NCBI RefSeq assembly: GCF_022808915.1
Contig: NZ_JAKZFS010000001.1
Span: forward strand, 1,008,644 to 1,072,643
Direction of reading: 5' to 3'
DNA from: Fundidesulfovibrio terrae
Lineage (GTDB): Bacteria; Desulfobacterota; Desulfovibrionia; Desulfovibrionales; Desulfovibrionaceae
DNA: 64,000 nucleotides
Part shown: positions 3,717 to 59,232 of the stretch, one piece after another
Position numbering within the stretch: the first letter of the stretch is position 1
Layout: the number at the start of each line of letters is the position of its first letter
Notes under the pieces: model-generated
What the model was told of the DNA's origin: nothing
The model's database searches: none
What the model saw: only the letters and a program-made list of their open reading frames with translations
Translations under genes and position numbers: made by a program

Positions 3717-4388
3717 GTGAACCCCTTGCGCGAGATGCTCCGCGAGGGCGAGCGCGTGGTGGCCTTCACGGGCGGGGGAGGCAAGACCACGCTCATGCGC
3801 GCCCTGGCCAGGCAGCTGGCCGGGTGGGGGGCCAGGGTGCTCACCACGGCCACCGTGGACATCCAGCCGCCGCCCCGGAATTTCCTTCTGCTGGAGCACG
3901 CGTCCGGCGTTCCCTTCTACACGCACCTGCACGCGGGCCTGTCCATCGACCCGGCCACGGGGCTCCTGCGCGGCGTGGAGCCGGGCAGCATCCCGGAACT
4001 CATGGAGCGCTTCCGGGCGGACTACGTCCTGGTGGAGGCCGACCGCGCGGAAGGGCTTCCCCTGAAGGCCCCCTGGGCGGGAGGGGCCGCCGTGCCCGCG
4101 CGGGCCGACCTGGTGGTCGGCGTCATGGGCCTGGACGCCCTGGGCCGGGCGGCGGACCGCGAAACGGTGTGCGGGCCGGTGGCCTTTCTGCGCCTGACGG
4201 GGCTCGGCCCTGGAGCGCCCATCGGCCAGGACGCCCTGGAGGCGCTGGCCGGACATCCTGAGGGCCTGTTCGCGGGCTCCCCTCCCCATGCCCGGACCCT
4301 GGCCTTCCACAACAAGGCCGACACCTTCGATCCCGCCGGGACGGTCTACGGGTCGGCCCGCATGGGCTGGTTCCATGGGGAGCCCTGA
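3717..4388 (+). CDS. yqeC: YqeC family P-loop protein, selenium-dependent hydroxylase maturation
   Basis: A 223-residue soluble protein with an N-terminal P-loop, AFTGGGGKTTLMRAL (residues 15-29), followed by VLTTATVDIQPP and an Asp/Glu-containing strand VLVEADRAEGLPLK. This is the layout of the YqeC/EF3100 family, which in other bacteria is linked to maturation of selenium-dependent molybdenum hydroxylases. The molecular reaction is not established. The GTG start has AGGGA about nine bases upstream. It is transcribed divergently from the kinase gene; the 186 bases between the two starts must hold both promoters. A selenium link is notable because a probable selenoprotein gene lies at 57.7 kb in this window. 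Confidence 0.75.
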   Translation: MNPLREMLREGERVVAFTGGGGKTTLMRALARQLAGWGARVLTTATVDIQPPPRNFLLLEHASGVPFYTHLHAGLSIDPATGLLRGVEPGSIPELMERFRADYVLVEADRAEGLPLKAPWAGGAAVPARADLVVGVMGLDALGRAADRETVCGPVAFLRLTGLGPGAPIGQDALEALAGHPEGLFAGSPPHARTLAFHNKADTFDPAGTVYGSARMGWFHGEP

Positions 4389-57687: not shown

Positions 57688-58008
57688 CTAGTGGCCGGAG
57701 CAGGAGCCGGTGGAGCAGGAACTGCCGCATCCGCCGCCGCCGAGTTCCAGACTCGAGTTGATCTGGAAGCCCATGTAGGAGAGGTCAACCGTGATGGGTT
57801 GAGCCTTGCTCATCAGTTCCTTGTCAACAATGAACGTATAGCCGTCGGCATCGAACACGTCGTCAGTATCTTTTGACTCGTCCAGAGCCAATGCCAGCCG
57901 GGGGCCAGCTCAGCCACCTGAGGAAAGGTACACGCGGATGGGGGATTTCTCCTTGTCCGCGAAGTACGAATCAAGCTGCTTCTTTGCAGCTTCGGTGAGG
58001 GTAAACAT
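57688..58008 (-). CDS. HesB/IscA-like protein with in-frame TGA, probable selenoprotein
   Basis: A 106-residue protein if the TGA at codon 33 (57912-57910) is read as selenocysteine. The frame is intact on both sides: MFTLTEAAKKQLDSYF ... RVYLSSGG, TGA, AGPRLALALDES ... LELGGGGCGSSCSTGSCSGH. The neighbouring paralogue has Cys at exactly this place (LSSGGCSGPRL), and IscA-type proteins have their first metal-binding Cys there. HesB-like selenoproteins are known in other bacteria. AGGAGG lies five bases before the ATG. A 7-bp hairpin with two G-U pairs directly follows the TGA; whether it is a working SECIS is untested. Its role is probably Fe-S or metal handling. Confidence 0.82.
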
Positions 58009-58116
58009 GGGAGCCTCCTGGGAAGTTTGCATCGTCGTGATAGGTAAGCTCCGTGTGGGTGTTTGTCAAATGTTGGGATTATCTATGAGTTGTATTGGTG
58101 ATCGCGGCTAAAATGG

Positions 58117-58208
58117 CCAAGCCCCGCCAGGCTGGCGCCTGGCGGGGCTTGGGAGGCAGATAAGAAGACTCCCGGAGCGCTTTGCAATGGGCGAAAGCAC
58201 TCCGGGAG
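58117..58208 (-). terminator. Tandem hairpins between the two HesB-like genes
   Basis: Two inverted repeats: a 15-bp perfect stem (58117-58131 with 58138-58152) followed on the minus strand by CCATTTTAG, and an imperfect one spanning 58169-58208. They end the Cys-form gene transcript. Confidence 0.75.
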
Positions 58209-58221
58209 CGGGTCCGTACGT

Positions 58222-58539
58222 CTAGGAGCAGCTGCCGCCGGAGCAGGAGCAGCCGCCGCAACCGCCGCCACCGAGTTCCAGGCTGGAATCAACGCTGAAA
58301 CCGGAGCAGGCGAAGTCGATGGTGAGGGGCTTGGCCTTTTCGAGCAGCTCCTTGTCCACGACGATGGAGTATCCGTCGACCTGGAACACATCGTCGGAAT
58401 CCTTGGGCTCGTCCAGGGCCAGGGTGAGCCTGGGGCCGGAACAGCCGCCGCTGGAGAGGAACACGCGGATGGGCGCTTTTTCGTTTTCCGCGAAGTAGGC
58501 GTCGAGTTGGGTCTTGGCGGGCTGGGTGACAGTGACCAT
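58222..58539 (-). CDS. HesB/IscA-like protein, cysteine form
   Basis: A 105-residue paralogue of the downstream Sec-containing protein. It opens MVTVTQPAKTQLDAYFAEN, has IRVFLSSGGCSGPRLTLALD with the first metal-binding Cys, and ends in a Cys/Gly tail (LELGGGGCGGCSCSGGSCS) that supplies the other ligands. Proteins of this fold carry or deliver iron or Fe-S clusters. The extra C-terminal Cys-rich tail is not in IscA itself. A CGGAGGATTG SD precedes the ATG. It is separated from the Sec form by 213 bases with two terminator hairpins, so the genes are probably transcribed separately. Confidence 0.87.
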   Translation of the reverse strand: MVTVTQPAKTQLDAYFAENEKAPIRVFLSSGGCSGPRLTLALDEPKDSDDVFQVDGYSIVVDKELLEKAKPLTIDFACSGFSVDSSLELGGGGCGGCSCSGGSCS

Positions 58540-58683
58540 GCAATCCTCCGTGAATGCGATTCTCTGGCTAATGTAGTAGGTCCGGGGAGGGGGTTGGTCA
58601 AATACGAATCCGTGATGCGCCGGTTTGCCTTGGCCGGTGAATTCGGATAGAAACTATAAAAAACAGCAATGCTTGGAAGGGTC

Positions 58684-59232
58684 ATGAAGCGTCAGAAAAT
58701 AGTGATGAACGGCAAGGAAATGTCACGCACCCTGGAGCGCCTGGCCTTTGAAATCCTGGAGCGCCACGGCGAGTGCACGGAACTGGCCCTGCTCGGCGTG
58801 CAGCGCCGGGGAGTGGAGCTGGCCCAGCGCCTCAAGCGGATCCTGGAGTCGCGCCTGGGCTGCGAGCTGCCCCTGGGCAAGCTCGACATCAACCTCTACC
58901 GCGACGACTGGACCAACCTGGCCCACCAGCCCCAGATCAACCAGACCGACATCCCCTTCAGCCTGGACGGACGCAAGCTCATCCTGGTGGACGACGTGCT
59001 CTATTCCGGGCGAACCGTGCGCGCAGCCCTGGAGGCCATTCTGGATTTCGGCCGCCCCCGCAAGGTGGAGCTCCTGGTCCTGGTGGATCGGGGGCACCGC
59101 GAGCTGCCGGTGCAGGCCGACTACATGGGCAAGCTCCTGCCCACCTCCCGCGACGAGCGGGTGGACGTGTACGTGAAGGAGCTCGACGGCGAGGACAAGG
59201 TCCGCCTGGCCGGCGAGGACCCGGCCTCGTGA
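58684..59232 (+). CDS. pyrR: PyrR bifunctional pyrimidine regulator / uracil phosphoribosyltransferase
   Basis: A 182-residue phosphoribosyltransferase-fold protein. The PRPP loop is LILVDDVLYSGRTVRAALEA, and the PyrR pattern is seen in LLGVQRRGVELAQRLKRIL, KLDINLYRDDW and DRGHRELPVQADYMGK. In many bacteria it binds pyr mRNA leaders; in others only the weak UPRT activity is used. No pyr operon or leader attenuator is visible here. I chose the ATG at 58684, with GGAAGG just upstream; one at 58669 is possible. Its TGA overlaps the GTG of the next gene. Confidence 0.9.
   Translation: MKRQKIVMNGKEMSRTLERLAFEILERHGECTELALLGVQRRGVELAQRLKRILESRLGCELPLGKLDINLYRDDWTNLAHQPQINQTDIPFSLDGRKLILVDDVLYSGRTVRAALEAILDFGRPRKVELLVLVDRGHRELPVQADYMGKLLPTSRDERVDVYVKELDGEDKVRLAGEDPAS

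What the first reader, a model, noticed from the sequence alone, without database searches (positions are those of the whole stretch)
57688..58539. Tandem HesB/IscA-like pair, one Cys and one probable selenocysteine form
The gene at 57688-58008 has a single in-frame TGA (57912-57910) exactly where its neighbour at 58222-58539 has the first metal-binding Cys (SSGG[Cys]SGPRL against SSGG[TGA]AGPRL). Both flanks stay in frame and conserved, and the SD is perfect. HesB-like selenoproteins are a known family, but a side-by-side Cys/Sec pair offers a natural comparison of two metal-site chemistries. A yqeC gene at 3.7 kb also points to selenium use. A 7-bp hairpin directly follows the TGA, though its loop lacks the usual GU-type apex.
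Basis: partly seen in the sequence, partly recalled or inferred. Interest (0 to 1): 0.85.

Follow-up and report, generated by a model that had tools for sequence, protein, structure and literature searches.

The report
Paired selenium and sulfur IscA-like proteins
Two neighbouring genes encode closely related iron-sulfur-type proteins, one carrying selenocysteine and the other ordinary cysteine at the same key position; the selenoprotein belongs to a known family, but this side-by-side pairing recurs across a whole bacterial family and seems to have been remade or overwritten several times.

Summary
In detail: gene 57688-58008(-) has one in-frame TGA (57912-57910) exactly where its neighbour 58222-58539(-) has the first conserved Cys. 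The TGA is almost certainly selenocysteine. The genome has selA, selB, tRNA-Sec (UCA) and a selD that itself carries an in-frame UGA. A different hairpin at +19 to +37 (core GGCUC-UGGAY-GAGYC) has its core invariant in 87 of 87 distinct Sec copies and its five pairs intact in 1 of 92 Cys copies, and the signature recurs across the phylum. Both proteins belong to NCBIfam NF038090 (IscA_HesB_Se) and adopt the IscA fold; a Desulfovibrio vulgaris member (DVU_1382) was listed in 2007. What I did not find described is the pattern: in 72 sampled loci, nearly all Desulfovibrionaceae, Sec and Cys copies are neighbours (70 within 500 nt), usually beside pyrR. The Sec copies do not form one clade (p-AU 2e-5), so one ancient duplication with separate descent cannot explain the pairs; repeated Sec-to-Cys duplication, gene conversion, or both are needed. 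In the window's genus each gene looks separately transcribed, which fits, but does not show, a selenium-dependent isoform switch.

The parts
57688..58008 (-). Sec-form IscA/HesB-like gene (106 aa, U33)
   Evidence: translated with TGA=U; NF038090 130.8 bits, cut-off 85; PF01521 31.9 bits
57910..57912 (-). in-frame TGA, selenocysteine codon 33
   Evidence: sequence; TGA in all 87 distinct Sec-form relatives, with an invariant downstream hairpin; selABCD in the genome
57873..57891 (-). candidate bacterial SECIS hairpin UUGGCUC-UGGAC-GAGUCAA, +19 to +37 after the TGA; invariant core at +21 to +33
   Evidence: fold; core in 87/87 Sec copies and 4/92 Cys copies; all 5 core pairs in 87/87 and 1/92; hairpin in the predicted fold 87/87 against 6/92
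58014..58019 (-). Shine-Dalgarno AGGAGG of the Sec gene
   Evidence: sequence; AGGAGG aligned in all six genomes of the genus
58040..58069 (-). putative promoter of the Sec gene: TTGACA, 17 nt, TACCTAT
   Evidence: TTTGACAAA and the -10 block conserved in six genomes of the genus; missed by the stricter consensus scan
58117..58152 (-). strong hairpin between the two genes, followed by CCATTTTAG, terminator-like
   Evidence: fold z-score -6.8 for the whole stretch 58100-58225
58168..58209 (-). second strong hairpin after the Cys gene, followed by TCTTCTTAT, terminator-like
   Evidence: fold
58222..58539 (-). Cys-form IscA/HesB-like paralogue (105 aa, C33)
   Evidence: NF038090 123.3 bits; only the two members of this family in the genome
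58573..58601 (-). putative promoter of the Cys gene: TTGACC, 17 nt, TACTAC
   Evidence: TATTTGAC block conserved in six genomes of the genus
58669..59232 (+). divergent neighbour pyrR, shared by most related loci
   Evidence: NF003549 238.5 bits, cut-off 138; homologous flanking family in 67 loci

Best explanation
The TGA is read as selenocysteine by SelB and tRNA-Sec with the help of the hairpin at +19 to +37, giving a full-length A-type-carrier-like protein of the IscA/HesB_Se subfamily in which the first metal-binding Cys is Sec (selenium step strongly supported by sequence, not measured). The neighbour is a Cys version of the same protein. The pair are the only clear members of the A-type carrier superfamily found in the genome, so they probably bind or pass on iron or an Fe-S cluster through Sec/Cys33 and C-terminal cysteines (inferred from family and fold). 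The two genes look like separate transcription units, so the Cys copy most likely serves when selenium is short or under other conditions (inferred). Across the family, Sec/Cys pairs do not descend from one duplication with both lineages kept apart: Cys copies arose from, or were overwritten by, Sec copies more than once.
For: Sec machinery complete: selB 360.5 bits, selA 608.8 bits, tRNA-SeC anticodon tca, selD 337 bits with its own UGA in SAG-U-AAK. SECIS: core GGCTCTGGAYGAG in 87/87 Sec and 4/92 Cys copies; Ala codon GCT 87/87 against 9/92, Leu CTG 87/87, Glu GAG 87/87, although the Sec genes as wholes use mixed codons. The stem extension keeps pairing in two different ways, UU..AA or bulged CGC..GCG, in most copies. 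The signature occurs in 205/348 genomes of the order and, slightly loosened, in 122/395 of the phylum, reversed control 0. Family NF038090; IscA fold, best hits 1x0g, 1r94, 1s98; C94, C98, C103 conserved. Genome: only two NF038090 members; PF01521 reached E <= 0.001 only at the Sec gene; a NifU_N scaffold protein is present. Pairing in 72 loci, 70 within 500 nt. One clade of Sec copies rejected, lnL 252.7 lower, p-AU 1.9e-5. One Cys copy (L019, TGT) keeps the complete SECIS, a trace of Sec-to-Cys change. Promoter- and terminator-like elements between the genes.
Against: No protein or selenium measurement. No evidence was found that either gene responds to selenium. Fe-S function rests on family and fold; the C-terminal Cys region has low model confidence. 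The promoter scan with strict consensus found none. The tree rests on about 92 columns. In 16 of the sampled distinct loci only the Sec copy and in 19 only the Cys copy was seen nearby, so the pair is common, not universal.
Confidence: 0.75

Rival explanations
1. The TGA is a real stop or a sequencing error, so the gene is a decaying pseudogene of the Cys copy.
For: One in-frame stop next to an intact paralogue is what a young pseudogene looks like; standard table 11 reads a stop.
Against: Same TGA at the same codon in 87 distinct sequences, with conserved protein sequence on both sides (mean column entropy 1.16 bits in Sec copies against 1.62 in Cys copies), an invariant SECIS and complete selABCD.
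Confidence: 0.02
2. One ancient duplication gave Sec and Cys paralogues that have been kept apart ever since, and the mixed tree is an artefact of short, fast-evolving sequences.
For: Nearly the same gene neighbourhood (pyrR) throughout; only 92 columns; long branches among the Cys copies.
Against: AU test rejects a Sec clade (p 1.9e-5, 0% of bootstrap trees); starred branches alone force at least 9 changes; gene order differs (Cys first then Sec in 13 distinct loci, Sec first in most others).
Confidence: 0.12
3. The two copies arose once, but gene conversion between the tandem genes keeps homogenising them while selection keeps UGA+SECIS in one and Cys in the other.
For: Mosaic identity in some pairs: L132 and L029 reach 93-98% nucleotide identity in parts of their 3' halves with runs of 44 and 38 identical bases; excess of clustered synonymous identity, p<0.01 in 3 of 72 pairs against 0.6% of 700 control pairs.
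Against: The excess is small and most pairs show no tract; changed gene order needs rearrangement or new duplication as well.
Confidence: 0.35
4. The two proteins have different jobs (neofunctionalised) and the Cys copy is not a selenium-shortage stand-in.
For: Cys copies differ from Sec copies at several positions (Y78 in Sec copies, mixed in Cys; E44-P45 in Sec; more C-terminal cysteines in Cys copies), and some neighbours have lost the first Cys altogether (E, A, D, S or L at 33).
Against: Overall the two forms keep the same core motif and subfamily; no functional data either way.
Confidence: 0.35

Closest known systems
NCBIfam NF038090 IscA_HesB_Se (IscA/HesB family protein)
   Same: Both window proteins score far above the curated cut-off over the full length.
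   Different: The model is for the single protein; the tandem Sec/Cys pairing is not part of what it tests.
HesB-like selenoproteins of bacteria, e.g. DVU_1382 of Desulfovibrio vulgaris (PMC1914089) and the 11 HesB-like selenoproteins counted in PMC1794560
   Same: HesB-family frame with an in-frame TGA; D. vulgaris and D. desulfuricans are listed as having one.
   Different: The passages read here do not report a neighbouring Cys paralogue, nor repeated origin of pairs.
A-type carriers IscA/SufA/ErpA (PDB 1x0g, 1r94, 2d2a)
   Same: Fold and the first Cys motif GG-C-xG.
   Different: Far below the IscA, SufA and ErpA equivalog cut-offs; the C-terminal motif is typically GC-x(2-3)-C, not the IscA CGC.
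Sec/Cys isoform switch of Methanococcus maripaludis (PMC11097638)
   Same: Parallel Sec and Cys isoforms of one protein in one cell; that organism also has a 75Se-labelled HesB-like selenoprotein of unclear function.
   Different: There the switched isoforms are methanogenesis enzymes under a known repressor (HrsM); here the pair is an A-type-carrier-like protein and no regulator is known.

Membership tests
selenoprotein gene (bacterial) | in-frame UGA aligned with Cys of homologues, conserved coding on both sides | tested here: met
selenoprotein gene (bacterial) | bSECIS stem-loop shortly after the UGA with a G early in the apical loop | tested here: met
   core hairpin at +21 to +35, loop UGGAY, 87/87 Sec copies; the rule on the loop G is from general knowledge; bSECISearch itself was not available
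selenoprotein gene (bacterial) | SelA, SelB, SelC, SelD in the genome | tested here: met
selenoprotein gene (bacterial) | full-length product containing Se | not testable with these tools
   needs 75Se labelling or mass spectrometry
NF038090 IscA_HesB_Se | score above the curated cut-off (85 bits) | tested here: met
   130.8 and 123.3 bits
TIGR01911 HesB_rel_seleno | score above the curated cut-off (66.35 bits) | tested here: not met
   32.8 and 32.1 bits
canonical IscA / SufA / ErpA | score above the equivalog cut-offs | tested here: not met
   at most 34.7 bits against cut-offs of 117 to 181
A-type carrier superfamily (PF01521) | Pfam gathering score and IscA fold | tested here: met
   31.9 and 29.7 bits against 26.3; IscA, SufA top fold hits
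A-type carrier superfamily (PF01521) | binds iron or an Fe-S cluster and passes it on | not testable with these tools
   needs purified protein

The most novel reading that the evidence does not exclude
Desulfovibrionaceae repeatedly create and keep tandem Sec/Cys isoform pairs of their only A-type carrier, with gene conversion homogenising the two copies everywhere except at the Sec codon and SECIS, and with separate promoters that switch isoform by selenium supply.
Probability: 0.15. Interest if true: 0.75.

Novelty: new variant of a known kind. Interest (0 to 1): 0.48.

Why it matters
The job of HesB-like selenoproteins is still unclear. Here nature supplies matched Sec and Cys versions of the same small protein side by side, each apparently with its own promoter, and some 70 loci to compare. 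That makes it possible to ask directly what selenium adds at a metal site, and how a UGA codon with its SECIS is gained, lost and protected during gene duplication.

Tried and rejected
Rfam scan around the genes gave only matches below gathering scores. The hairpin directly after the TGA was tested as the SECIS and set aside for lack of conservation. A strict sigma-70 consensus scan found no promoter; conserved blocks in six genomes of the genus were used instead. Rooting the tree with Sec forms from other families of the phylum failed: the outgroup did not stay together and long branches met, so direction of change rests on the one fossil SECIS and on the phylum-wide Sec signature. A distance test of whether Cys copies evolve faster was not clear-cut (35 of 72), although protein entropy is higher among them. 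The gene-conversion scan gave only a weak excess. Papers on DVU1382 beyond the 2007 list were not found.

Full report
What is in the window. On the minus strand, 58222-58539 encodes a 105-residue protein with the motif SSGGCSGPRL, and 57688-58008 encodes a 106-residue protein with SSGG[TGA]AGPRL; the TGA is at 57912-57910, codon 33. They are 68% identical. Both match NCBIfam NF038090, IscA_HesB_Se, far above its cut-off (130.8 and 123.3 bits against 85) and Pfam PF01521. They are the only two NF038090 members in the genome. A PF01521 search of the genome at E <= 0.001 found only the Sec gene and nothing over the curated cut-off, so no canonical IscA, SufA or ErpA was seen; a NifU_N protein is present at 173 bits. 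The nearest named relative is Fundidesulfovibrio agrisoli, family Desulfovibrionaceae.

Is the TGA selenocysteine? The genome carries selB (360.5 bits), selA (608.8 bits), a tRNA-Sec with anticodon tca and selD (337 bits), whose own active site is encoded with an in-frame UGA (SAG-U-AAK). I collected 87 distinct TGA-bearing and 92 Cys-bearing relatives. After the TGA, the stretch +21 to +33, GGCTCTGGAYGAG, is invariant in 87 of 87 Sec copies, down to synonymous positions (Ala GCT 87/87, Leu CTG 87/87, Glu GAG 87/87), while Cys copies use varied codons there (GCT in 9 of 92); the core occurs in 4 of 92 Cys copies and its five base pairs are all intact in 1 of 92. It folds as a hairpin with loop UGGAY in 87 of 87 Sec copies and 6 of 92 Cys copies, and its lower stem is often kept in one of two alternative ways, UU paired with AA or a bulged CGC paired with GCG. 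In the window the hairpin is UUGGCUC-UGGAC-GAGUCAA, 57891 to 57873. Position and loop fit what is generally known of bacterial SECIS elements (general knowledge). A search for TGA plus this signature hit 205 of 348 genomes of the order, nearly all in the window's own family, and 122 of 395 sampled genomes of the phylum with a slightly looser pattern; the reversed control pattern hit none. I regard Sec decoding as established short of a direct measurement.

What the pair is. AlphaFold gives a confident core (mean pLDDT 82; the Cys-rich tail after residue 91 has low confidence) whose best structural matches are IscA and SufA. Residue 33 is the first conserved Cys of the family; C94, C98 and C103 are conserved in the tail. 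By family and fold these are A-type-carrier-like proteins; that they handle iron or Fe-S clusters is inference.

Prior knowledge. A HesB-family TGA gene of D. vulgaris, DVU_1382, was listed in 2007 (PMC1914089), and HesB-like selenoproteins of D. vulgaris and D. desulfuricans were counted in 2006 together with Sec-to-Cys conversion events in the family (PMC1794560). In Methanococcus a HesB-like selenoprotein was seen by 75Se labelling and its function is called unclear (PMC11097638). A-type carriers were reported absent from many Delta-Proteobacteria (PMC2682760). So the gene is a new member of a known selenoprotein family.

What I did not find described. Among distinct sampled loci, 72 hold both a Sec and a Cys copy on the same strand, 70 of them within 500 nt. 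Most lie beside a divergent pyrR (identified in the window; homologous flank in 67 loci). Order varies: Sec then Cys in most, Cys then Sec in 13 loci including the window's genus. The sample was taken from best-scoring matches, so these are not frequencies; 16 loci showed only Sec and 19 only Cys. A tree of 54 proteins needs 14 changes between Sec and Cys, and holding all Sec copies together is rejected (lnL 252.7 lower, p-AU 1.9e-5). In several lineages the Sec and Cys copies of one genome are each other's sister. Hence the pairs were either made several times or are homogenised by gene conversion. For repeated origin: varied order, and one Cys copy (L019, TGT) that still carries the complete SECIS. 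For conversion: some pairs have long nearly identical 3' stretches (L132, L029) and there is a small excess of clustered synonymous identity over control pairs. I cannot separate the two.

How it may work. In the window two strong hairpins, each followed by a T-rich tail, lie between the genes. Across six genomes of the genus, TTGAC-type -35 blocks are conserved upstream of each gene, with a conserved -10 block before the Sec gene, and hairpin-plus-T elements separate the pair in many other genera. Separate transcription is therefore likely, and a switch from Sec to Cys isoform under selenium shortage, as in Methanococcus, is the simplest functional guess. It is not shown. The consistent differences between the forms and the further loss of Cys33 in a third tandem paralogue in some genomes leave room for different functions.

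Verdict. Observation confirmed; interpretation supported, with the SECIS relocated. Family known, tandem pairing widespread and evolutionarily restless, function open.

Noticed in passing
L036, L038, L039, L040, L042, L045, L048, L056, L082, L092 (downstream of the Sec and Cys genes): A third tandem paralogue in Solidesulfovibrio-like genomes has lost the first Cys (E, A or D at position 33) but keeps cysteines near its end; L105, L111, L113 have an S form before the Sec gene.
   Followed up: partly
L019:2151-2465(-): Cys copy with TGT that still carries a complete SECIS hairpin, an apparent fossil of a Sec-to-Cys change; the Cys copy of its relative (L020:1501-1812) has lost the hairpin.
   Followed up: partly
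window 3717-4388(+): yqeC (TIGR03172), selenium cofactor biosynthesis, suggesting a second use of selenium in this genome.
   Followed up: partly
L050 (own genome C1:1243285-1244208): selD is itself a selenoprotein gene (in-frame TGA in SAG-U-AAK), next to a LysR-like regulator frame.
   Followed up: no
genomes G475 and G610: Three places with the TGA+SECIS signature in one genome, so some relatives may carry several Sec forms.
   Followed up: no
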